A stretch of DNA of 43,758 nt. It comes from a virus. Under the pieces are notes generated by a model, which did not search any database, had not been told where the DNA came from, and saw nothing but the letters and a program-made list of their open reading frames with translations. Below are positions 4,272 to 27,129 of this stretch, piece after piece. A program made the position numbers and the translations under genes. The first letter of the stretch is position 1; every line of letters begins with the position of its first letter. Location: positions 1-43,758 of IMG/VR virus record IMGVR_UViG_3300017783_000054; one strand, 5' to 3'.

Positions 4272-4279
4272 TATTTATG
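4272..4279 (-). promoter_or_regulatory. late promoter CATAAATA
   Basis: A T4-type late -10 motif 24 nt before the ATG of the 241-aa fibre gene. The TAA inside it is the stop codon of the U32/methyltransferase gene. Confidence 0.75.
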
Positions 4280-6065
4280 TCTCAGGGATCTCTTCTTCAT
4301 AGTCTTTCTCATAGTGTACTGGTGTTTTATGAATTGCAAACTCATTCTTACCAATAACCATTACAGCAACACCATTCCACCATCCCATACTATCCTCAAT
4401 CTCTTGAGAACGTAGGACTTTCTTGTATAGTACAGCGAAATTACGATCTTTGCACAGTTTATCTACTGCTGCCATCACACCATCAAAGTTACAATCATCC
4501 ACCACAAGTGTGAATGGATCAGTTGCAAACTGATAGAACTGTGTCAGGTTTTGATATGTTGCCTGTGGATCATGATCAGCATCATAGAAGATAACCTCAG
4601 GTGGATACTTAGCATTCAATTCATTGATTGTAAAGATGTCCTGATCTTTGAACAGTACAGCATTAGTTCCCATATACTTCTTACCATTCTCTTGGAATGT
4701 AGCAATAGGATCATCAATTGGTTCCCATGGAATATCATCACGAGCAGGTGCAATATTCTCTTGACTAAAGTTGTCAATAGCATATGCTTTTACATCATTG
4801 CCCATCATTGCTGCCCACAATGTGCTGCCAACATAACAACCAAGGTCAGCATATACTACTGACTCACCATCTAAAGACTTGCATAGGTTGTTGAGAAGAT
4901 GACGAACCTTATTAGATGATAGTCCAGGCACATCATATCCTTCCTCTACAAAGTTAGATTGATGCAGCAATGCGTCTTCTACTGCTTTCTGTGCTCTCAA
5001 TACTTGTGGATGTAACATTCTATTTTGTTTACGATAGTGTGCATCAACAACTGACTCACAGTAATTACAATCCCAGCACTCAAACTTACAGGTCTTGATC
5101 TTATCTCGCCAGATGTCAATAGGTTTATCTTCTAAACCAATATCCTCAGTATACTTATCAAACTCAGGGAATAACATTGGTTCATTCTTACTCCAACGTT
5201 CAACAATATCCATAGATTCTTTCAAACGCATCATATCTTCACGACCGTGCATCTTGAAACAATCAATACCATAATAGTTGATGAACTCCTCCCAATCTTC
5301 CTTCCATGGTGGTAGGTTTGCTGCTTTTAGTGAGGTAGAACTATCAAAGGTGTCCCACTTTTCGCATGACTGAATACTAATCTCATTGGCAAAGTATTGC
5401 ACATCATTATTTGGACCTTTAGAGCAGTTATATTGATAGTGCTCATCCATCATAGGACATCCACCCCAGCATCCTTCATTTGTCAGGATAGACAACTCTA
5501 CTGGCATACCTTCACGGATACAGTATTCTTTTGCCTGCTTGATTCTATACAAAGTATCTGCATCACGCATCAAATCGCGATCCAGATTGATGTAATGAAA
5601 CCCTGCCTTTGCTAGGTTTACAATATCACGAGGTTTGTCTACATTCCTCAGAATAGTATTCTTGATGAATAGATCTGGAAAGATCTTCTGGATCATACCA
5701 GATGCTACCCAATGAGTATGTGGTAGCGTAACAATACGAACACCAGCATCATAAATTGGTTGAAAGTATTGACACCATGTTCTCAAGTTATCCATCGATG
5801 GATCAACATGAATGTTATTGAAGGTGGCAGACAATGGAATATCACTGAGTTCACCAACCTTCAACGCATTGATAGTTGCTGCCTGATACATCTCAGACTC
5901 AGTATAAACATCCCCCATCGCATCTTGAATGAATGGAGGAATGCGACAGGTGAAATATAAATCCCTGATATATTGGTGATTCAGATTTAGAAACGGTACA
6001 AATGTCTCCAACATAAATCTCTCATCCATCTTGGGATTGATGGGGAGACTAAACACCTTCTTCAT
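4275..6065 (-). CDS. fusion of U32-like Fe-S TIM-barrel protein and SAM methyltransferase
   Basis: A 596-residue two-part protein. Residues about 30-345 resemble the peptidase U32/UbiU-like family: alternating beta strands (LSATFNNIHV, GVRIVTLPHTHW, YINLDRDL), then ELSILTNEGCWGGCPMMDE with C199, C203 and C214, and a second cluster C326-x3-C330-x2-C333-x2-C336. Such cysteines could hold a [4Fe-4S] cluster, as in UbiU/UbiV, RlhA and TrhP. Residues about 395-575 look like a class I SAM methyltransferase (TylF/Methyltransf_24-like): YADLGCYVGST at 405-415 is the SAM-binding loop, followed by IDNFSQ, VIFYDADHD at 491-499 and VVDDC at 521-525, which may bind metal. Family knowledge suggests an oxygen-independent hydroxylation or RNA/small-molecule modification coupled to O-methylation, but the substrate is unknown. 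Its stop is embedded in the next late promoter. Confidence 0.6.
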   Translation of the reverse strand: MKKVFSLPINPKMDERFMLETFVPFLNLNHQYIRDLYFTCRIPPFIQDAMGDVYTESEMYQAATINALKVGELSDIPLSATFNNIHVDPSMDNLRTWCQYFQPIYDAGVRIVTLPHTHWVASGMIQKIFPDLFIKNTILRNVDKPRDIVNLAKAGFHYINLDRDLMRDADTLYRIKQAKEYCIREGMPVELSILTNEGCWGGCPMMDEHYQYNCSKGPNNDVQYFANEISIQSCEKWDTFDSSTSLKAANLPPWKEDWEEFINYYGIDCFKMHGREDMMRLKESMDIVERWSKNEPMLFPEFDKYTEDIGLEDKPIDIWRDKIKTCKFECWDCNYCESVVDAHYRKQNRMLHPQVLRAQKAVEDALLHQSNFVEEGYDVPGLSSNKVRHLLNNLCKSLDGESVVYADLGCYVGSTLWAAMMGNDVKAYAIDNFSQENIAPARDDIPWEPIDDPIATFQENGKKYMGTNAVLFKDQDIFTINELNAKYPPEVIFYDADHDPQATYQNLTQFYQFATDPFTLVVDDCNFDGVMAAVDKLCKDRNFAVLYKKVLRSQEIEDSMGWWNGVAVMVIGKNEFAIHKTPVHYEKDYEEEIPET

Positions 6066-6266: not shown

Positions 6267-6471
6267 TGTTCTCCTTGTTGAACTTCTTGCGGCATTTTTT
6301 GACCTCTTTGAGTTCGTCTTTGATCATCTTGTAAGCATCTTCAGGTAAGATTTTACGTGCCATTTCCATGGCAGTAATGATCTCCACTCTTGTGCCAAAA
6401 TGCTGTAACGCTCTCTCAAAGCAGTCTAGTTCTTCATACATCAGTTTATGTAACCATTTTGTTGTAACCAC
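6259..6471 (-). CDS. small helical hypothetical protein (70 aa)
   Basis: Soluble, almost entirely alpha-helical by composition, with a Lys/Glu-rich C-terminal half (ELKEVKKCRKKFNKENNE). It overlaps the preceding metalloprotease-like gene by 31 nt and the following membrane gene by 8 nt, as expected for a coupled operon. No function is recognised. Confidence 0.55.
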   Translation of the reverse strand: MVTTKWLHKLMYEELDCFERALQHFGTRVEIITAMEMARKILPEDAYKMIKDELKEVKKCRKKFNKENNE

Positions 6472-7115
6472 TCCCGTGTCATTGGAGTAGGATCATAGTC
6501 CGTCCACATAGTACCAGCGGCACAAGATTCAAGTGCTGCTTGAGTCATACCTTCAGTTTTACCTGCCCAAGTTGCTTCCTTCTCCCATGGTCTTGCAGCA
6601 GGTGGATATGTTCTATTCACCATTTCTTGCCAGATCATAGGTACTTCATCCTCAGGTTTGATGATAGCAATCATACTGTTATCAATAGTTCCTGCCATAC
6701 AATCTTGTGCAGCGTGCCATCCTTCATGACGCATTACACTCATCAGAACATGAGGACGGTGCATAAATGCATCATTCAGATAGAAGTTATTAGATACAGT
6801 ATGATATACACCACGATGTCCTACAGGGAAATACTTTTGTGGTGCAAGATATACTTGAACATCGACAAGTGTCAGTGCATTCAAAATTCTAGAGAATTCT
6901 AATTCTACTGGACTCCAATCTGCTTCTGGATACTGTTGCTTTAGGTAACCAATACCCCAGATTGCTTCCACTTGATCAGTACACTCACCAAGAAGCATAC
7001 ATCCCATAGAGTGATTGGTGTTGTAATTAGCAGGAGTGATGTTCTCCATCGCAGATACGGCAACACCGCCCGTTAGAGTTAGGAATAACCCACTCAAAAT
7101 AGCATTACGGATCAT
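6441..7115 (-). CDS. exported HExxH metalloprotease-like protein
   Basis: 224 residues. The N-terminus (MIRNAILSGLFLTLTGGVAVSA) is a signal peptide, with likely cleavage after VSA at 20-22. The core holds a zinc-metallopeptidase motif HEGWH at residues 130-134 within VMRHEGWHAAQDC. A third zinc ligand is not obvious; a Glu in the C-terminal WEKEATW region is a candidate. Cys residues (C39, C45, C139 and a C-terminal one) may form disulfides, consistent with export. The likely site is the periplasm or thylakoid lumen, but the substrate is unknown. A consensus sigma70-like promoter ends 21 nt upstream of the ATG, so it is probably expressed early by host polymerase. Confidence 0.6.
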   Translation of the reverse strand: MIRNAILSGLFLTLTGGVAVSAMENITPANYNTNHSMGCMLLGECTDQVEAIWGIGYLKQQYPEADWSPVELEFSRILNALTLVDVQVYLAPQKYFPVGHRGVYHTVSNNFYLNDAFMHRPHVLMSVMRHEGWHAAQDCMAGTIDNSMIAIIKPEDEVPMIWQEMVNRTYPPAARPWEKEATWAGKTEGMTQAALESCAAGTMWTDYDPTPMTREWLQQNGYIN

Positions 7116-7780: not shown

Positions 7781-8803
7781 TCATCTTACGTTGTGTCCTC
7801 CAAACATATACCTCATACCATTCAAAACGCGATTAGCAAAAACACTCAATCTTCTGCTATTGAATCTCTCAAATAAGGCAGCAGATATAACAGGAGTGGG
7901 TACACCAAGATCCACAGCAGTGTGCAAAGTCCAACGACCTTCACCACTATCTGATACGCCCCCGTCAAACTGTCCGAGATCGTCATGATCATGCCGTAAT
8001 ACGTCAGCGGTAAGATCAAGTAACCAAGAACCAACCACAGAACCCCTGCGCCATAACTCAGCAACTTCAGTGCAGTCAATGTCATAGCAATAATCCTCAG
8101 GACACTCCATTGGAGCAACCTCAGCATCTCCTTCTTTGACATACTTAGCACCTGCATTTGCTTCATGAAGTACATTGAATCCTTCAGCATATGCTTGCAT
8201 GATTCCATACTCAATGCCGTTGTGAACCATCTTCACAAAATGACCTGCACCTGGTGGTCCACAATGTAACCAACCATACTCGGCAGATGTTGCTATAGAT
8301 TTTGGATCTGTTCGTGGTTCAGCACCAATACCAGGAGACAATGCTCTGAAGATAGGTGAACAAACTTGTACGGCAGATGTTTCACCACCAACCATTAGAC
8401 AATACCCACGATCCAAACCATATACACCACCAGATGTGCCACAGTCAATATATTGGATACCCAATTTACTGAGACGATTAGCACGGCGTCTAGAATCCTT
8501 GAAGTTGCTATTACCATGGTCTATGATAATATCTCCCTCTGTAGCACTCTCTAGGATCTCCTGGAGGGTGTTCTCAACGTTCTCTGCTGGTACAACCATT
8601 TGATAGATTGCTGGTCCATCCTGATGCAAAACTCTAGATAATTCTTCGATACCATATACAATGCCAGAAACATATCCTTTTTCATATGCTTCTTCTGCTG
8701 CTTCTCGGTTTCTCCGATAACCCCAAGTTTCGATGTCCTGTTTCATCATGCGGCGAGACATGCCCTCACCCATGCGTCCAAGACCGATAATTCCGACTTT
8801 CAT
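7781..8803 (-). CDS. gnd: 6-phosphogluconate dehydrogenase (decarboxylating)
   Basis: Oxidises 6-phosphogluconate to ribulose-5-phosphate and CO2 with reduction of NAD(P)+, the second oxidative step of the pentose phosphate pathway. 340 residues, matching the short (YqeC-type) class rather than the 470-residue class. Visible features are the Rossmann motif GLGRMG at residues 7-12, IIIDHGNS at 92-99, the signature YIDCGTSGG at 118-126 and GAGHFVKMVHNGIEYG at 185-200 with K191 and N195 as expected catalytic residues. It starts 1 nt after petE. gnd is a known cyanophage auxiliary gene, acting with talC and cp12 (also in this window) to supply NADPH and pentoses for phage DNA. Confidence 0.96.
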   Translation of the reverse strand: MKVGIIGLGRMGEGMSRRMMKQDIETWGYRRNREAAEEAYEKGYVSGIVYGIEELSRVLHQDGPAIYQMVVPAENVENTLQEILESATEGDIIIDHGNSNFKDSRRRANRLSKLGIQYIDCGTSGGVYGLDRGYCLMVGGETSAVQVCSPIFRALSPGIGAEPRTDPKSIATSAEYGWLHCGPPGAGHFVKMVHNGIEYGIMQAYAEGFNVLHEANAGAKYVKEGDAEVAPMECPEDYCYDIDCTEVAELWRRGSVVGSWLLDLTADVLRHDHDDLGQFDGGVSDSGEGRWTLHTAVDLGVPTPVISAALFERFNSRRLSVFANRVLNGMRYMFGGHNVR

Positions 8804-8804
8804 T

Positions 8805-9128
8805 TTAGTTTACGTGAACTGTTCCAATCATGCCTGCTCCCTTATGAGGAGCACACCAGTAAGTATACTCCCCTGAGTCAGTAAAAACAACATCAAATTC
8901 CTCTCCTGGCAACATTGCAAGGGATTCATGACCTAAATCTGGACGACCTTCCACAATAACATTATGTGGGGGAAGCATATTGTTGACAAAATGAACTGAT
9001 TCACCTGATGAGATTGTAACCTCATTAGGTTCAAAAACTAGGTTCCCATTAGAACCCATTTGCACATCTACTGCCCATACTGGTGCAGAGAAAAACAATG
9101 CAACAAACAACGTGATGATAAATTTCAT
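8805..9128 (-). CDS. petE: plastocyanin
   Basis: A 107-residue blue-copper protein that carries electrons from cytochrome b6f to photosystem I in the thylakoid lumen. The signal peptide spans residues 1-19 (ends PVWA). The four copper ligands are visible: H55 (PPHN), C92 and H95 (YWCAPH) and M100 (KGAGM). It is slightly shorter than host plastocyanins but complete. It is the first gene of a petE-gnd pair; an A/T-rich TATATAAA stretch upstream could be a promoter but matches neither motif class well. petE is a recognised cyanophage auxiliary gene expected to keep photosynthetic electron flow going during infection. Confidence 0.96.
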   Translation of the reverse strand: MKFIITLFVALFFSAPVWAVDVQMGSNGNLVFEPNEVTISSGESVHFVNNMLPPHNVIVEGRPDLGHESLAMLPGEEFDVVFTDSGEYTYWCAPHKGAGMIGTVHVN

Positions 9129-9156: not shown

Positions 9157-9804
9157 TTATATACCTACTAATGTTACCTTTGAACTGTCATCTAAAGCAC
9201 ACTCAGTTAGAATGTCAACACCTAATGCAATCCTTGGTACGACTGAGTTTTTATGTTGATCTGTCCAGTAAGTAAGATACTCTGGAAACAGAGTTAGTGT
9301 TCCTGCTTCATCCTTATAACTGATAGCGTTGTTACCAAATGGATTTTGATAATATGTGGATGTAGTCTCACTTTGTAAGATGATACTAGCAGAGAGAAAA
9401 CTATACTCATCAAAGTTATGATGGTGTGGTTTGATTGCCTGCCCACGTCTTAGAATAGTACCCCACATTCTTCCATAGAGAGGTTCATCATAGTCAGGAT
9501 ACATGTCCTTGACACAATGCTTTATCACGTTCTTGATATGCTTACACGTCTCATCTTCCCATGCAAACATATTATATGCTCTGAACTTAGCAGCAAGAGA
9601 AAACTCACCAAGACCAGTACCACCATCATCAGTGTGATCCATATGCTCTTTGATTAGATCTCCTTCCCTTGATAGCACTAACTGTGCTAACTGCAAGGAT
9701 TCTTGAGGACTAATACATTTACCATGCCATGCCTTAGCACTAAACTGAACCGCTACTGGTGTTCTTGCTGGATTAGGTTGCTCAAATAGTGTGATATTAC
9801 TCAT
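9157..9804 (-). CDS. 2OG-Fe(II) oxygenase-like protein 1
   Basis: About 215 residues. The motif PHHHNFDEYSFLSASI matches the H...S.(L/I)SG pattern of the 2OG-FeII_Oxy_5/TIGR02466 family, and downstream LFPEYLTYWTDQHKN...RIALGVDI supplies the distal His and the 2-oxoglutarate-binding Arg. Iron- and 2-oxoglutarate-dependent hydroxylation is therefore likely. A frame from 9828 exists, but ATG 9804 gives an 8-nt overlap with the upstream gene, typical here, whereas 9828 would overlap by 32. It is the last of four consecutive oxygenase-type genes. Substrate unknown. Confidence 0.7.
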   Translation of the reverse strand: MSNITLFEQPNPARTPVAVQFSAKAWHGKCISPQESLQLAQLVLSREGDLIKEHMDHTDDGGTGLGEFSLAAKFRAYNMFAWEDETCKHIKNVIKHCVKDMYPDYDEPLYGRMWGTILRRGQAIKPHHHNFDEYSFLSASIILQSETTSTYYQNPFGNNAISYKDEAGTLTLFPEYLTYWTDQHKNSVVPRIALGVDILTECALDDSSKVTLVGI

Positions 9805-10513
9805 TTTGATTACGGATTCCCATGCCAACTAATGAATATCTATGTTCATCCAAAAATGCTAACTCAGGAACGTATGCAGAATGAAAGAATCCTCCATCAT
9901 ATACTAGACAACTATTATATTCAATAGGTGCAACAGTATCAAGTTTCCAATCCTCATTACCACGGAAACATTTCCATGGAACGGTAGTATTAGTATTGGT
10001 TTCAGGGAATAGTTCTTCATACTCTTCCCTATTCAATTCAGTGACATACTTCTTATCTCTCCACTTCCAGAATGCAGTGCCGCCAATACCCTCACACATC
10101 CAAAGATTGAATACGAAGTTGATAACATTCAACTGACCTTCAGGATCAACAAACACGTCAGCATGTGGTTGTTCAGAGTTCTCAATCATAGGCATATCGC
10201 CTGTGAATACATTAGTGAACACACGAACTGGTGCAAAGTCTACATCCTTACGAATGCGATCAACAATAGTTGCAGCAGCATATGGTGGGATTTCTTGACG
10301 CCAACCAGGTGCAAATCCTCCTGTACGTTTCCATTGTGTAGAGATTACAGGAAACTGTTCCATTACCTCAACATATAGTTCAGGATTCTTTAGAAAGTTT
10401 CTATACATCTTGAAGGAGTTCATACCATCAATCTGTACTGTAGATAATTCAGTATCAGGATTTATCTGTACTGCTTTGAGAAATTTCTCTTCGTCAATCC
10501 AATTGAAACTCAT
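9797..10513 (-). CDS. 2OG-Fe(II) oxygenase-like protein 2 (DUF6445-like)
   Basis: 238 residues. EQPHADVFVDP holds an HxD pair, FNLW.CEGIGGTAFWKWRD follows, and SCLVYDGGFFHSAYVPE supplies the distal His, with RYSLVGMGI carrying the Arg. This is the jelly-roll HxD...H arrangement in a DUF6445-like protein. It differs clearly from its three neighbours, so it is not a recent duplication of them. It overlaps the upstream oxygenase gene by 4 nt (ATGA). Confidence 0.65.
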   Translation of the reverse strand: MSFNWIDEEKFLKAVQINPDTELSTVQIDGMNSFKMYRNFLKNPELYVEVMEQFPVISTQWKRTGGFAPGWRQEIPPYAAATIVDRIRKDVDFAPVRVFTNVFTGDMPMIENSEQPHADVFVDPEGQLNVINFVFNLWMCEGIGGTAFWKWRDKKYVTELNREEYEELFPETNTNTTVPWKCFRGNEDWKLDTVAPIEYNSCLVYDGGFFHSAYVPELAFLDEHRYSLVGMGIRNQNE

Positions 10514-11190
10514 TGCTTTACCACCTTGAATGAATATGTACCTCTACAATCGAGTACCTCAGGAAGAACATTGAATGAGATACTTACACGATTGTCTGCA
10601 TGACTATTCTCATATCCATGCAGTAGATTAGATTGCCACAATAGCAGATCACCTTCCCCATTAGGAATAATAGCACCAGTAGAATTATACTTAGTCTGCT
10701 TAGATTCTGTCAGTTCTAAGTATGGTTTGCTCATGGCACCAGGGACACCACCAGGGAACTGAAATCCTAGATGTGGATGCTTACCAGTCTCAAAGTTGAC
10801 ATAGTATGTACCACTGATGAATGAATTACTATGGCAGTGCATGAACTGATACCCAGCATAATCACACTTGTTCAACCAGCAATCAGTGACAACAACAGAC
10901 TCACACTTATATCCTAGTGTGTTAGTAACATAATCTAAAGTACACTCTTTGATCCATGAATGAAACTTATCCCACCCAGGTTCATCGAGAAGACATTGAC
11001 CACCACTATTGAAGAAGTGTTGTAGATCAATACTATTACCGTTCATCCTAGAGACATTAGTATCAGCATTATACTGATCTATTACTCCAAAAGATTTTTC
11101 TTTTACATCATCAATGCCATTCTGAGGCATACGATAAACACCAATTGCTTGAGGGAATACCTCAATCACATTACTACTTGTTTGTTCCAT
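10510..11190 (-). CDS. 2OG-Fe(II) oxygenase-like protein 3 (TIGR02466-like)
   Basis: 226 residues. The family signature is clear: MHCHSNSFISGTYYVNF (iron-binding His and the SGxYYxN strand) and GDLLLWQSNLLHGYENS followed by NRVSISFN (distal His and 2-oxoglutarate Arg). A putative iron/2-oxoglutarate hydroxylase. It lies 1 nt after oxygenase 4 and overlaps oxygenase 2 by 4 nt. Substrate unknown; a protein or cell-surface target is possible given the neighbouring fibre genes, but that is inference. Confidence 0.75.
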   Translation of the reverse strand: MEQTSSNVIEVFPQAIGVYRMPQNGIDDVKEKSFGVIDQYNADTNVSRMNGNSIDLQHFFNSGGQCLLDEPGWDKFHSWIKECTLDYVTNTLGYKCESVVVTDCWLNKCDYAGYQFMHCHSNSFISGTYYVNFETGKHPHLGFQFPGGVPGAMSKPYLELTESKQTKYNSTGAIIPNGEGDLLLWQSNLLHGYENSHADNRVSISFNVLPEVLDCRGTYSFKVVKQ

Positions 11191-11191
11191 G

Positions 11192-11863
11192 TCAAAATTC
11201 TAATCGATTTAGGGCGAAGTCATGTCCAAGTTTACCTGTCATCCAAATATTGAATGAGATACTGTATCTTGGTTTATCTAATGTTGATGGAACTGTACAA
11301 TGTTCCAACCATGAAGGAAAAATGAGTAACATATTCTTCTTAGGACGAATAACAATTTCGCCTGAGTTGAACTTACCAGTTTTCCTGATCCTTGGCATAA
11401 TTTGATATCGAGATGATAATGGATCGATGAACTTTACACATCCACCACCCATGTCATCAATCTCTACATCATTAGGATACCATACTCCAGAGAAAAATGA
11501 ATTGCTATGTGCATGAGGATGAAGAGAACCACCAGTATTCAATGAGTTGCCCCACATTGACGTGATATATGGTTCGATATCCATATAACCACACTTGTCC
11601 CATACATTATTGACTGCGGTAACTACTTTGGTACTAAAATTCTTGAATAGTGGTTCTTGATTTAGTGTATCACGAGATGAAAATGCATCTTGCTCTTCAC
11701 CTTGTGGTGTAAAATGCTGGTTTTCTAAAGGTTTTTCCAGTTCTTTTACAATATCACGCTGTTCCTCAACAGCACATGTAAACTCAAACAATGGCACAGA
11801 AAAAATTTCATGCACAAATGAATCCATCGGAGCGGATGGACCATCATAACTAAAGTATGACAT
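11192..11863 (-). CDS. 2OG-Fe(II) oxygenase-like protein 4 (TIGR02466-like)
   Basis: 223 residues. HPHAHSNSFFSGVWY is the iron-binding and SGxxY motif, LLIFPSWLEHCTVPST the distal His, and RYSISFN the 2-oxoglutarate Arg strand. It is clearly related to oxygenase 3 but diverged through most of its length. It shares one base with the stop of the upstream coiled-coil gene (TGATG), so translation is coupled. It is the first oxygenase of the run. Confidence 0.75.
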   Translation of the reverse strand: MSYFSYDGPSAPMDSFVHEIFSVPLFEFTCAVEEQRDIVKELEKPLENQHFTPQGEEQDAFSSRDTLNQEPLFKNFSTKVVTAVNNVWDKCGYMDIEPYITSMWGNSLNTGGSLHPHAHSNSFFSGVWYPNDVEIDDMGGGCVKFIDPLSSRYQIMPRIRKTGKFNSGEIVIRPKKNMLLIFPSWLEHCTVPSTLDKPRYSISFNIWMTGKLGHDFALNRLEF

Positions 11864-12621
11864 CAGTCCTCAGATCCTTGCAACAGGTTGGTGATGGCAT
11901 CACTACCACCAGTGATCATATCATGGAGAGGAATATTCATTGTGTCCTCAATACCTTCCCAACTAGGAAGTGTAAAGTTATTAGGATCACGCAGCAATTC
12001 GTTAGCAGCAGGTTTCAATGCTCTCTCAATCTTCTGTAACTGTGAACCTAACAAGTTACTGTATTGGAAACCAATTGACAATGCTTTTAGTTGATCCTCC
12101 TCAGGCATCATTGAGATAGAATCTAAATTACCAACACTAATACGACCGAATGACATCATGTCAAGTGCTGCCTGTTTGCCCATACGAGCGATCCAATATT
12201 TCTTCTCTTCTTCCTCATCATCATTCCAATAGCGCAGAAGATCTTCTTCTGTCTCACATGAATCTTGAACCATCTTGATAAAATGATCAGATTCTTTTAC
12301 CTGGCGCTTATACTTACGCTCTGCGATCTCAATATCGATGACCTTATCTTTGTGATCGATCTGTAGCAACTCACGCTCATAGTCATCTTCGCACTCTTCA
12401 AGACGCCTCTCGATATGCTTCTGATGAACTTTCTCACGTTCAATTTCAAATTCAATTTTCTTCAGTGAATGGGTTCTGTTCTCAAGTTCAAGCAATGCTT
12501 GTCTTACTTGACGATATTTTGTGACATGCGACTTACCAACAAAAGTTTCATTTTGATACTTTGTTTGACCGCTTGCATATTTCACAGAATAGTCAATAAT
12601 CTGATCAGCGGATAATGACAT
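11863..12621 (-). CDS. coiled-coil protein, likely virion-associated (252 aa)
   Basis: Residues about 35-130 are strongly heptad-like and highly charged (LENRTHSLKKIEFEIEREK and onward), indicating a long coiled coil. The C-terminal half is more globular (IARMGKQAALDMMSFGRISVGN). It stands between a structural-type gene and the oxygenase run and is coupled to the latter by TGATG. I recognise no named family; a scaffold, chaperone or tail-associated role is possible. Confidence 0.55.
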   Translation of the reverse strand: MSLSADQIIDYSVKYASGQTKYQNETFVGKSHVTKYRQVRQALLELENRTHSLKKIEFEIEREKVHQKHIERRLEECEDDYERELLQIDHKDKVIDIEIAERKYKRQVKESDHFIKMVQDSCETEEDLLRYWNDDEEEEKKYWIARMGKQAALDMMSFGRISVGNLDSISMMPEEDQLKALSIGFQYSNLLGSQLQKIERALKPAANELLRDPNNFTLPSWEGIEDTMNIPLHDMITGGSDAITNLLQGSED

Positions 12622-12648: not shown

Positions 12649-13557
12649 TCAGAAAGCGAAACCGATTCCTAACTCCTTAGTTCGGGTCTCTTTACCAGTT
12701 TCTTCATCGATGACAAGTCTGCCCATCTCAACTGCCTGTGTTTGTGGCATTTCAATGTTGAAGTAGTCTTCATAAAAAATGTTCATCTCTTTGATTGTAG
12801 CGCAGTTCTTGTATGCCTGCTTTACTTGTGCCATCTTCTGAAGCAGAGTAGTTACTCTAGTCCTGTGATTGACCCTTGCAGTGTTGACTTTAGCAACGAT
12901 CTCCTCAACTGTCAAGCCCCTAGCAGTAGCAAGTGCTGTCAAGATGGGTACATCAGCAGTATTATCTGCTGCCCATGCTTGTGCTTCTTCCCATTGATAC
13001 TCAAATGTTACTTGTTCTAACGTATTGTTCAGATCAAGTTTTGCAAGACGCTTATCCATTTCTTCTTCAACAACTGCCTTAGCGACTGCTTTCATTGCCA
13101 GAACAGTTGCATCCTTTCGTTGCTGATCAAAGGGAAGTGTGACCTTCTCACCAGGATTTTGAGTTGGTTGAGTAACAGTAAGGAATTTTAGTTGTGGATC
13201 AAATGCAAATGTTGTGGGTTCCCAAGAGTTATTCACAGAACTCACGTTATCTTCATCAGTATCAACACCACCAGCAGCAGTGTTATCAATGATCTCACCA
13301 CCTTCAAGATCAGTTCTGATTACTTTGATATTATCTCTAACCTCAGCAAAGGATCTAAATCCTTTACTTGCTACCATTTCATTCAGAATGTAGAATCTAT
13401 TCTGAGGATTAGACATCTGATAGGTATCTTCAAAGATGGTCTTGTTATCTGTTGCGACAGAGAACGAGATCCAATCTAAGACAGAATAATAGTTGACGAA
13501 CTCATCTGGCATCGAGTTCATCCATTTGCCTGCTTTTGCGAGATAGTATGTACGCAT
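12649..13557 (-). CDS. hypothetical structural-region protein (302 aa)
   Basis: Begins MRTYYLAKAGKWMNSMPDEF. The middle (FAFDPQLKFLTVTQPTQNPG) is beta-like, and the C-terminal half is helical and Ala/Glu-rich. It starts 12 nt after the stop of the adhesin gene upstream and probably shares its late transcript. No family is recognised; it may be a fibre-associated or connector protein. Confidence 0.5.
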   Translation of the reverse strand: MRTYYLAKAGKWMNSMPDEFVNYYSVLDWISFSVATDNKTIFEDTYQMSNPQNRFYILNEMVASKGFRSFAEVRDNIKVIRTDLEGGEIIDNTAAGGVDTDEDNVSSVNNSWEPTTFAFDPQLKFLTVTQPTQNPGEKVTLPFDQQRKDATVLAMKAVAKAVVEEEMDKRLAKLDLNNTLEQVTFEYQWEEAQAWAADNTADVPILTALATARGLTVEEIVAKVNTARVNHRTRVTTLLQKMAQVKQAYKNCATIKEMNIFYEDYFNIEMPQTQAVEMGRLVIDEETGKETRTKELGIGFAF

Positions 13558-25387: not shown

Positions 25388-25395
25388 TATTTATA
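25388..25395 (-). promoter_or_regulatory. late promoter TATAAATA (perfect T4 consensus)
   Basis: Matches the T4 late consensus exactly, 28 nt before the ATG of the 439-aa fibre gene. The TAA in it is the stop of the halogenase-like gene. Confidence 0.85.
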
Positions 25396-26470
25396 CTGGT
25401 TTGTAGATGCGTCCTAGATTATCATACATGTTCATTACCGACTGAGATGTATGGAAACCATAAGTAACCATATTTGTACGGATGTCGCCATCAATTATGT
25501 TCTGAATAAATGAGTCGCTGAGTTCTAAACTCTTTGCATAATCCCAAAATGGCGTATCATACTTAGATCCAAACTTATAATGATACAGGATAAAGTTAGC
25601 ATTCTCTTTGATCGAGCGTTGCATGTCATACTCAATTTTCTGTATTGGTCTTTCTCCCCATACTGCTTCCATCGTAAGTTCAATCCACTTCATATATCCA
25701 GCAACAGATGTTGCTTCCATAGGTTCGATAAAGAAGTATCTGTTACCGTTTAGGAATACTCGGTTATCAATAATAGGACTTTTGGCATAATAGTTCCTGA
25801 ACGGGAATGTTGCAGTAATATTATCTACACCAAATTGTTCTTTGAAATTTACCTCTGCTTCAGTGTCACTAGTAATATCACCATTATATAAGTATCCATA
25901 TTGCACACGATCTTGCAAATGGATTACAAATGTCCATCCATCTGGTGTTGTAACAGTTCTAGTCCATGGAACATTATCTGGATTGGGCATGTTAGATAAC
26001 ATTACCCGATTCAAAGGGTTAGTAATTATATTATAGTCTGTATAATCTGTAGGAAATCCTCTACAGTCATACACATAGTCTGCGTCACATTCATCATAGG
26101 TCTCAATATGCTTCTGAGTTACCTTGAAGATGCCTGTATCGCATATAAAATCTTGAAATAGATGAGGATCTAGGTGCATACCTACCTCATCAAAGTTGAA
26201 TGGGTGGAACCATTCAGGTTTATCTCCCCACCCCTCATATTTGATACCAAACTTAGGAGTTGCTTTCCAAGGATTATCGTGCCAGTTTAGACTCCACCCA
26301 AATGTATCTGCCAGAAAACCTGTCAGACCAGGAAAGGATCCCGACCCAACAGGTTCTGTATCAATCTCTTCATCATAATACAGTTCGACTTCAGTCTTAG
26401 GTGAGTAATGTCGCCAATATAATGCTGTAAGGACTCCCGCTAGACCTTTGCCAAGAACTGCAACTTTCAT
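25391..26470 (-). CDS. flavin-dependent tryptophan halogenase-like protein
   Basis: About 359 residues from ATG 26470, which overlaps the talC stop as ATGA; a longer frame from 26494 is less likely. FAD-binding GKGLAG is at residues 7-12. K73 in ATPKFGIKYEGW aligns by eye with the catalytic Lys of PrnA-type enzymes. DCRGFPTD (about 135-142) and FFIEPMEATSVAG match the family landmarks DCxGF and FIEPLExxxI. The WxWxIP motif typical of halogenases is degenerate (W179-T-F-V-I-H184), and the protein is much shorter than PrnA (about 540 residues). It may therefore halogenate a different substrate or act as another flavin monooxygenase. Confidence 0.75.
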   Translation of the reverse strand: MKVAVLGKGLAGVLTALYWRHYSPKTEVELYYDEEIDTEPVGSGSFPGLTGFLADTFGWSLNWHDNPWKATPKFGIKYEGWGDKPEWFHPFNFDEVGMHLDPHLFQDFICDTGIFKVTQKHIETYDECDADYVYDCRGFPTDYTDYNIITNPLNRVMLSNMPNPDNVPWTRTVTTPDGWTFVIHLQDRVQYGYLYNGDITSDTEAEVNFKEQFGVDNITATFPFRNYYAKSPIIDNRVFLNGNRYFFIEPMEATSVAGYMKWIELTMEAVWGERPIQKIEYDMQRSIKENANFILYHYKFGSKYDTPFWDYAKSLELSDSFIQNIIDGDIRTNMVTYGFHTSQSVMNMYDNLGRIYKPV

Positions 26471-27129
26471 AGTTTTTCTTTGAGTGATTTCCAATCTTCT
26501 TTGAACTTTTCAAGACCAGCGTCTGTCAGTGCATGTTTATACATTTTCCAGAATAGTGCTGGTGGCATAGTAACCACATCAGCACCATATAAGAATGCTT
26601 TCTCGATATGCTCTACAGATCTGGTCGATGCTGCTAGCACCTCAGTATCGTGAACTGCATGAGTTTCAAACGTTCCCACAATACCCTTGATAAGACCTAA
26701 AGCATCAAATCTTTGATCTTCTACTCTACCAATAAATGGAGATACAAAAGAAGCACCTGCTTTTGCTGCTAGAATTGCTTGTGAGATTGAGAATACTAGA
26801 GTTACGTTTACTCCAACTCCGAAGTCGGATAGATTCTTACATGCCAAAAGACCATCATAGTTACATGGCACTTTGATGGTAATATTTTGTGAAATATGAT
26901 AGAAAGGTTCTGCTTCTATAAGCATATCTTCTGCATTCTCTGAATTTACTTCTGCGCTAATACTAGCGTATTGTCCTTCAAAGATATCTGCAATTTCTTT
27001 GATTACTTCTTTAGGTTCTTTACCTTGAGCAAGCATCAAAGATGGATTTGTGGTTACACCGTCAATCAATCCTGTTTTATATGCTGACCTGATAAGATCG
27101 GGATCAGATGTATCTAAAAAGATTTTCAT
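26467..27129 (-). CDS. talC: transaldolase (TalC / F6P-aldolase-like)
   Basis: 220 residues, the short TalC/FSA-type class found in cyanophages. It transfers a dihydroxyacetone unit between sugar phosphates in the non-oxidative pentose phosphate pathway. Visible features: MKIFLDTSDP at the N-terminus, DGVTTNPSL at 23-31, NITIKVP at 82-88 with K86 as the Schiff-base lysine, and SPFIGRVED. It complements gnd and cp12 in this window, redirecting carbon from the Calvin cycle to NADPH and ribose synthesis. The 153-nt region upstream has a TTGACA (27183..27178), but no good -10 follows at 17 nt; TATGAT (27169..27164) is an alternative -10 without a consensus -35. Confidence 0.96.
   Translation of the reverse strand: MKIFLDTSDPDLIRSAYKTGLIDGVTTNPSLMLAQGKEPKEVIKEIADIFEGQYASISAEVNSENAEDMLIEAEPFYHISQNITIKVPCNYDGLLACKNLSDFGVGVNVTLVFSISQAILAAKAGASFVSPFIGRVEDQRFDALGLIKGIVGTFETHAVHDTEVLAASTRSVEHIEKAFLYGADVVTMPPALFWKMYKHALTDAGLEKFKEDWKSLKEKL

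What the first reader, a model, noticed from the sequence alone, without database searches (positions are those of the whole stretch)
4275..6065. U32-like Fe-S protein fused to a SAM methyltransferase
Seven or more cysteines in two clusters (C199/C203/C214 and C326/C330/C333/C336) sit in a TIM-barrel-like half, followed by a complete methyltransferase half. U32 proteins of this type perform oxygen-independent hydroxylations; the fusion suggests hydroxylation then O-methylation of one substrate, perhaps a quinone, RNA or surface sugar. It lies next to fibre genes and an exported metalloprotease-like gene.
Basis: partly seen in the sequence, partly recalled or inferred. Interest (0 to 1): 0.75.

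Follow-up and report, generated by a model that had tools for sequence, protein, structure and literature searches.

The report
Phage fusion of hydroxylase-like and methyltransferase domains
Viruses of marine cyanobacteria carry, beside their tail-fibre genes, one protein that joins a probable iron-sulphur hydroxylase to a methyl-transferring enzyme, which may add a hydroxyl group and cap it with a methyl group on a viral protein.

Summary
The feature is real and lies on the minus strand (4275-6065, 596 aa) of a T4-like cyanophage. Residues 1-281 form a U32-type barrel: the lone-domain model's best PDB match is U32 protein 5D88, Z 16.3, next fold 13.2. Sequence intermediates link it to Pfam U32. 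Residues 369-575 form a class I, metal-dependent-type O-methyltransferase. Seven cysteines are invariant in the N half: C199, C203, C234, C326, C330, C333, C336. The pattern differs from the published four-Cys U32 motif, so this is a divergent seven-Cys branch, fused to a methyltransferase in phages and standalone in a few bacteria. In 84 of 92 loci with enough flank a phage gene (GC353) lies within 1.5 kb upstream, next to tail fibres. GC353 occurs in 123 phage records with the same organism totals as the fusion; where the fusion is duplicated, GC353 is too. Some bacterial homologues sit beside secretion genes and hydroxyl-capping enzymes. Best reading: hydroxylation then O-methylation of a tail-fibre-associated protein (35%). 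Rivals: glycan or small molecule, tRNA (as in B. subtilis YrrN/O plus TrmR), phage DNA. No substrate, Fe-S cluster or activity could be tested.

The parts
4275..6065 (-). Whole gene: U32-like / O-methyltransferase fusion, 596 aa
   Evidence: PHROG 1458 E 1.1e-264
5016..6065 (-). N-terminal U32-like domain with C-terminal cysteine extension (residues 1-350)
   Evidence: AlphaFold2 pLDDT 90.5, pTM 0.90; 5D88 best hit, Z 16.3, 219 residues, 3.1 A
5457..5471 (-). C199-x3-C203, just after barrel strand 7
   Evidence: 50 of 50 rows; strand 190-194
5364..5366 (-). C234, between barrel strands 7 and 8
   Evidence: 49 of 49 non-gap rows
5058..5090 (-). C326-x3-C330-x2-C333-x2-C336 in the extension behind the barrel
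   Evidence: 48 of 48 non-gap rows each; also invariant in bacterial and Pfam-recognised U32 relatives
4341..4961 (-). Class I SAM methyltransferase domain (residues 369-575)
   Evidence: Z 16.5 to MeT1 6g80, 184 residues, 3.1 A
4827..4841 (-). G409-x3-G413, SAM-loop-like
   Evidence: 42 of 42 non-gap rows each
4581..4583 (-). D495, first of a D..DD triad like the metal site of TylF/COMT-type O-methyltransferases
   Evidence: 42 of 42 non-gap rows; aligned with the FIDAAK region of YrrM; role as metal ligand recalled
4494..4499 (-). D523-D524, rest of the triad
   Evidence: 42 of 42 non-gap rows each; aligned with TDN of YrrM
11863..12621 (-). GC353-type gene (252 aa), constant companion of the fusion
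   Evidence: phrog_1409; 123 records with the same totals as the fusion
12649..13557 (-). GC352-type gene (302 aa), second companion
   Evidence: phrog_10301 and phrog_1604; query of the same family in 117 records

Best explanation
The gene makes a two-step tailoring enzyme. Shown by computation: the N-terminal half is a divergent seven-cysteine member of the U32 barrel superfamily, and the C-terminal half is a class I SAM methyltransferase with a D..DD triad typical of metal-dependent O-methyltransferases. Inferred: the N half binds one or two [4Fe-4S] clusters and hydroxylates its substrate without O2, perhaps with prephenate as oxygen donor as proposed for TrhP, RlhA and UbiU/UbiV; the fused C half then methylates the new hydroxyl. 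Inferred more weakly: the substrate is a polypeptide, most likely GC353, GC352 or a tail-fibre protein that they help to build, so that the phage modifies its own host-recognition apparatus.
For: Fold: 5D88 (U32) is top for the lone N domain, Z 16.3 against 13.2 for the next fold. Homology chain: the family profile hits further bacterial proteins at E 1e-7 to 1e-23, five of which pass the PF01136 cut-off; hhalign against a set of those probability 99.5; a mixed profile reaches TrhP at 97.4. Seven cysteines invariant in all 14 mixed sequences. MTase fold Z 16.5; triad 42/42. Serial precedent YrrN/O then TrmR, and YrrM/TrmR is the best PDB sequence match of the MTase profile, E 0.0032. Partner: GC353 within 1.5 kb upstream in 84 of 92 loci; same 123-record totals against 223 for neighbour denV; pair duplicated together in 3 of 3 loci with a second fusion copy, L045, L046, L094. 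Bacterial homologues beside export genes: in L126 and L127 the start overlaps the stop of an upstream ORF and a type I secretion set follows; L158/L164 beside SecA-like, M50/HlyD, Trp halogenase and APH-like genes; L129 near a GLUG-repeat protein, sulphotransferase and APS kinase.
Against: No substrate, cluster or activity was tested. The published U32 cysteine motif and catalytic Glu are absent. Direct profile comparison of the phage/bacterial N domain with TrhP alone is weak (28%). Only 29 of 75 loci with enough flank have an oxygenase neighbour within 1.5 kb. Two of seven bacterial contexts are not secretion or peptide modification (L128 behind type III CRISPR genes; L125). The bacterial set is small (3 of 397 and, at high score, 1 of 297 genomes). 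The RTX-like label on the ORF ends in L126/L127 is mine by eye; Pfam gave only a sub-threshold DUF5776 match for L126 and nothing for L127. GC352 and GC353 match no Pfam family above its curated cut-off, so their link to fibres rests on position. The 123 records are many isolates of few species and the sets were compared by totals, not accession by accession.
Confidence: 0.35

Rival explanations
1. It modifies a small molecule or glycan: hydroxylation and O-methylation of a sugar, lipid or quinone that ends up on the fibre or the host surface.
For: The structural neighbours of the MTase half include sugar O-methyltransferases MeT1, SpnH and MycF (Z 15.0-16.5) and catechol-type ones, nearly tied; UbiU/UbiV act on a quinone precursor (PMC6747719, passages); the L129 homologue lies near a sulphotransferase and sulphate activation genes.
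Against: No glycosyltransferase was seen among the neighbours that I examined; the constant partner GC353 is a protein with no enzyme match.
Confidence: 0.25
2. The fusion is a one-piece version of B. subtilis YrrN/YrrO plus TrmR: it hydroxylates and O-methylates a wobble uridine (mo5U34) or another RNA base to tune translation during infection.
For: Exact serial precedent (PMC6599085, passages); YrrM/TrmR is the best PDB sequence match of the MTase profile, E 0.0032; cyanophages carry tRNA genes (recalled).
Against: The N half lacks the TrhP cysteine motif and Glu; the MTase domain is strongly acidic (median pI 4.57 over 42 rows), though TrhP itself is 5.8, so charge is weak evidence; the closest standalone relatives occur in few genomes (3 of 397), unlike a core tRNA enzyme; fixed linkage to GC353 and fibre genes is unexplained; no tRNA gene in the window.
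Confidence: 0.2
3. The barrel half is not a redox enzyme: the cysteines bind zinc or a structural cluster and the protein is a methyltransferase with a targeting domain.
For: CX3CX2CX2C-like motifs also occur in zinc sites (recalled); no cluster was shown.
Against: All seven cysteines are invariant also in standalone bacterial proteins that have no methyltransferase, and charged barrel residues such as D162, R163, R167 are invariant, which suggests catalysis.
Confidence: 0.12
4. It hypermodifies phage DNA bases, as RlhA and TrhP hydroxylate pyrimidine C5 in RNA.
For: Phage RB69 ORF050c is listed with a Pfam U32 match in a table of T4-like novel ORFs (PMC1524935, passage); cyanophage DNA hypermodification has been reported (PMC12783734, search listing only); denV is near in 15 of 75 loci.
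Against: RB69 is not among the 123 records found even at E 10; denV is far more widespread than the fusion (223 against 123 records); position with fibre genes.
Confidence: 0.08

Closest known systems
U32 oxidases TrhP, RlhA, UbiU, UbiV (Pfam PF01136)
   Same: Same barrel fold as the U32 protein 5D88; a mixed profile aligns to TrhP with probability 97.4, barrel strand before the first cysteine included
   Different: CX3C-X30-C plus CX3CX2CX2C instead of CX6CX15CX3/4C; E162 of TrhP aligns with S192; no direct Pfam match; fused methyltransferase
B. subtilis YrrN/YrrO with TrmR (YrrM), the mo5U34 pathway
   Same: U32-dependent hydroxylation followed by SAM-dependent O-methylation; YrrM is the best PDB sequence match of the MTase domain
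   Different: Separate proteins there, one fused here; substrate here unknown
Metal-dependent O-methyltransferases MeT1, SpnH, MycF, COMT-type
   Same: Fold, Z 14-16.5 over 165-191 residues; D..DD triad
   Different: Sequence identity 9-16%; Pfam Methyltransf_24 only at E 0.16, under its cut-off
PHROG 1458 / T4-GC 354
   Same: It is this family: full-length match E 1.1e-264; T4-GC 354 in GenBank notes
   Different: Listed as unknown function; no description of the two domains found in the searches

Membership tests
U32 oxidases / Peptidase_U32 | TIM barrel like 5D88 | tested here: met
   Foldseek E 5.9e-7, rank 1; VIA Z 16.3, 219 residues, 3.1 A, next fold 13.2
U32 oxidases / Peptidase_U32 | Match to PF01136 above its cut-off | tested here: not met
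   No PF01136 match for the window protein or the close standalone relatives; more distant relatives L143, L144, L145, L146, L151 pass it
U32 oxidases / Peptidase_U32 | CX6CX15CX3/4C cysteine motif (PMC6747719) | tested here: not met
   Invariant pattern is CX3C-X30-C and CX3CX2CX2C
U32 oxidases / Peptidase_U32 | Essential Glu (E162 of TrhP, PMC6599085) | tested here: not met
   E162 aligns with a Lys of L143 in the hhalign output and, carried over through the family alignment, with S192 of the window protein
U32 oxidases / Peptidase_U32 | [4Fe-4S] cluster and prephenate-dependent hydroxylation | not testable with these tools
   needs protein
Metal-dependent class I O-methyltransferases | Class I fold | tested here: met
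   Z 16.5 to MeT1
Metal-dependent class I O-methyltransferases | D..DD (or D..DN) metal triad | tested here: met
   D495, D523, D524 in 42 of 42, aligned with YrrM D..DN; metal role recalled
Metal-dependent class I O-methyltransferases | Curated Pfam match | tested here: not met
   Methyltransf_24 13.3 bits against 26.3
mo5U34 synthesis (YrrN/YrrO/TrmR) | tRNA substrate | not testable with these tools
   needs nucleoside analysis
Radical SAM | CX3CX2C in the loop after the first barrel strand (position recalled) | tested here: not met
   First strand is 5-8; the only invariant CX3CX2C is at 326-333, behind the barrel

The most novel reading that the evidence does not exclude
Seven-cysteine U32 proteins are an undescribed class of oxygen-independent maturases of fibrous or exported proteins, carrying two Fe-S clusters (one possibly with an open site, seven cysteines being 4+3). 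Bacteria place them beside capping enzymes such as a sulphotransferase or kinase, and cyanophages have fused one to an O-methyltransferase to decorate GC353 or the tail fibre, alongside 2OG oxygenases and a Trp halogenase in some genomes.
Probability: 0.22. Interest if true: 0.85.

Novelty: new variant of a known kind. Interest (0 to 1): 0.57.

Why it matters
The fusion is common and unannotated: 123 phage records carry it, while 376 records with cyanophage-type names carry a relative of the window's baseplate hub, so it is present in the order of a third of such genomes. If the protein reading is right, it would extend U32 chemistry from RNA and quinones to proteins, reveal post-translational modification of phage host-recognition parts, and give a tractable single-chain system for the unsolved U32 mechanism.

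Tried and rejected
Radical SAM: rejected by position of the CX3CX2C motif. Plain peptidase reading of U32: not pursued; the characterised members cited here are involved in hydroxylation. Direct sequence match of the whole family to PDB: nothing significant; a profile that includes Pfam-recognised intermediates does reach 5D88 at E 1.6e-16, which leans on those intermediates. Charge as a sign of RNA binding: N domain median pI 5.51 (48 rows), MTase 4.57 (42 rows), but TrhP is 5.8 and UbiV 5.17, so it decides little. Plasmids: no relative. Phages other than cyanophages: none, even with a bacterial query. NCBIfam: nothing for the window protein. Wider bacterial search: 2 of 135 genomes in one genus and 2 of 200 in one family, the same two genomes. 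Metal-dependence of the MTase from literature: search listing only, not read. Literature on U32 in phages or on such a fusion: searches gave no description; the library lacks most subscription journals. PMC13191261 and PMC1524935 were checked for U32 by passages; the first means a nucleotide position, the second lists RB69 ORF050c. PMC3037559 (passages) has no mention of GC 352, 353 or 354 in its main text. Fold searches were limited to PDB; the viral structure library was not used. Z lists do not show every family, so absent families are not excluded.

Full report
What is there. The stretch 4275-6065 holds one 596-aa ORF on the minus strand. The plus strand of the same stretch does not code. 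The window is a cyanophage fragment: its genes match cyanophage PHROGs, and the nearest isolates are S-SSM2, S-ShM2 and S-RIM14 (protein identity 94.6-94.8%). Relatives covering at least 80% of the protein occur in 123 of 50,697 phage records, all with Synechococcus, Cyanophage or Prochlorococcus names; raising the limit to E 10 added none. It is PHROG 1458, unknown function, and T4-GC 354 in GenBank notes.

Conservation. In 27 full-length rows and then 50 rows including bacterial homologues seven cysteines are invariant where the row has no gap: C199 and C203 (50 of 50), C234 (49 of 49), C326, C330, C333 and C336 (48 of 48 each). D162, R163 and R167 are 50 of 50.

N-terminal half. For the lone domain the U32 protein 5D88 is Foldseek's first hit (E 5.9e-7, TM 0.47/0.64) and stands out in the VIA list with Z 16.3, 219 residues at 3.1 A, against 13.2 for the next fold, MTHFR. 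Pfam gives no U32 match for the protein itself nor for close standalone relatives. The link by sequence runs through intermediates: a profile of phage and bacterial N domains hits further bacterial proteins at E 1e-7 to 1e-23 (14 of 297 genomes besides the query's own). Of eight proteins then tested, five pass the PF01136 cut-off (L143, L144, L145, L146, L151) and three have no U32 match (L156, L140, L141). Profile against profile gives probability 99.5, E 4e-22; a mixed profile reaches TrhP with 97.4, E 1e-11, while the phage/bacterial profile alone against TrhP gives only 28%. In the mixed 14-row alignment all seven cysteines are invariant. So this is a branch of the U32 superfamily with its own cysteine pattern. 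The published four-Cys motif (PMC6747719, passages; review PMC11574389, passages) is visible in TrhP, RlhA and, in variant form, UbiU/UbiV but not here. By count, seven cysteines could hold a 4+3 pair of clusters; that is inference.

C-terminal half. Residues 369-575 match class I methyltransferases: MeT1 Z 16.5, TomG 16.2, 5x7f 16.0, SpnH 15.8, MycF 15.1, tied or nearly so by the tool's margin. G409, G413, D431, D495, D523 and D524 are present in 42 of 42 rows that reach the domain. The best PDB sequence match of its profile is B. subtilis YrrM, E 0.0032, with D495 and D523-D524 set against the D and DN of YrrM. YrrM is TrmR, which methylates the hydroxyl on tRNA U34 whose formation needs the U32 proteins YrrN and YrrO (PMC6599085, passages). 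Hydroxylation then O-methylation is therefore a known order of events for such a pair; here it is in one chain.

Neighbourhood in phages. I scanned 122 loci (L001-L122; 34 and 80 from the two IMG/VR scans, 8 named phages) for relatives of 14 query proteins. Among 92 loci with at least 1.5 kb upstream, a GC353 gene lies within 1.5 kb upstream in 84, GC352 in 72. Among 105 with 1.5 kb downstream, a 2OG oxygenase (PF13759 type) is found in 22, denV in 20, a DUF6445 gene in 17; among 75 with both flanks, 29 have one of the two oxygenase kinds nearby and 46 do not. In named genomes with notes the order is tail fibre or other structural-type genes, GC351, GC352, GC353, fusion. GC353 queries from Syn33 and from the window each find 123 records with the same split by name (77/38/8) as the fusion and the same leading host totals; I did not compare the accessions one by one. 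GC352 finds 117, denV 223, the Trp halogenase 50, and the baseplate hub 620, of which 376 bear Synechococcus, Cyanophage or Prochlorococcus names. In the window's own lineage the two genes are 5.8 kb apart, with oxygenases, plastocyanin, gnd and others between, yet both are kept. Three loci (L045, L046, L094) have a second fusion gene, and in all three a second GC353 precedes it; L044 shows the second GC353 before its contig ends. GC353 and GC352 match no Pfam family above its curated cut-off.

Standalone bacterial relatives. Six genome-contig loci (L125-L130) hold a ~350-aa protein with the same seven cysteines and no methyltransferase; two further hits, L123 and L124, carry the phage-type sequence in MAGs and are probably phage contigs (inference). 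A seventh, more distant one is L140/L158. Contexts: L126 and L127, start codon inside the end of an upstream ORF, then OEP, ABC with C39-like and HlyD-like genes (HlyD by my reading); L158/L164, near SecA-like, M50/HlyD, Trp halogenase and APH-like genes; L130, with a DUF6445 gene and a radical SAM/SPASM maturase-like gene; L129, 3.7 kb from a GLUG-repeat protein and near a sulphotransferase, with APS kinase behind; L128, directly behind type III CRISPR genes; L125, no clear theme. Five of seven thus have export, surface-protein or peptide-modification neighbours and two do not; the sample is too small for a test, and I chose the categories after seeing the contexts.

Reading. The pattern that fits most of this is a maturase of fibrous or exported protein, hydroxylating a side chain that a partner enzyme then caps; in phages that partner is fused. 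The constant partner GC353 is the first candidate substrate or adaptor. This is an inference from position. The tRNA rival has the best biochemical precedent, the glycan rival the closest methyltransferase folds, and the DNA rival a loose phage precedent. I give 0.35, 0.25, 0.20, 0.12 and 0.08 to protein, glycan or small molecule, RNA, non-redox, and DNA. Confidence that the two halves are a U32-type barrel and a class I methyltransferase is about 0.95.

Limits. Coordinates of the models are not returned, so cysteine distances were not measured. Nothing biochemical could be tested. Loci are capped samples, best-scoring first, and many phage records are near-identical isolates.

Noticed in passing
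window 25391-26494 (-): Tryptophan halogenase gene (phrog_2928) near the tail-fibre genes of the window; a Trp_halogenase also lies near the standalone U32 gene of bacterial locus L158.
   Followed up: partly
window 9157-11863 (-): Run of three 2OG-Fe(II) oxygenase genes and one DUF6445 gene between GC353 and the fusion.
   Followed up: partly
window 7781-9128 (-): 6-phosphogluconate dehydrogenase and plastocyanin genes, named so in the close isolate S-SSM2.
   Followed up: no
window 6441-7115 (-): 224-aa ORF with apparent signal peptide and HEGWH motif, phrog_591, no Pfam match.
   Followed up: no
L128 7998-9065: Standalone seven-Cys U32 gene starts 22 bases behind a type III CRISPR gene run (Cas10 and RAMP matches).
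   Followed up: no
L141, L142: Proteins of about 545 aa with two successive matches to the U32-like profile, encoded in tandem.
   Followed up: no
L129 8744-9520: A second, 258-aa protein with a CX3CP motif follows the U32-like gene; no Pfam or NCBIfam match.
   Followed up: no
L035 8001-8148: GenBank start of the S-SSM2 gene (CPLG_00038) is 49 codons inside the conserved N terminus.
   Followed up: no
L123, L124: Phage-type sequences in MAGs labelled Dehalococcoidia and Euryarchaeota, probably misbinned phage contigs.
   Followed up: no
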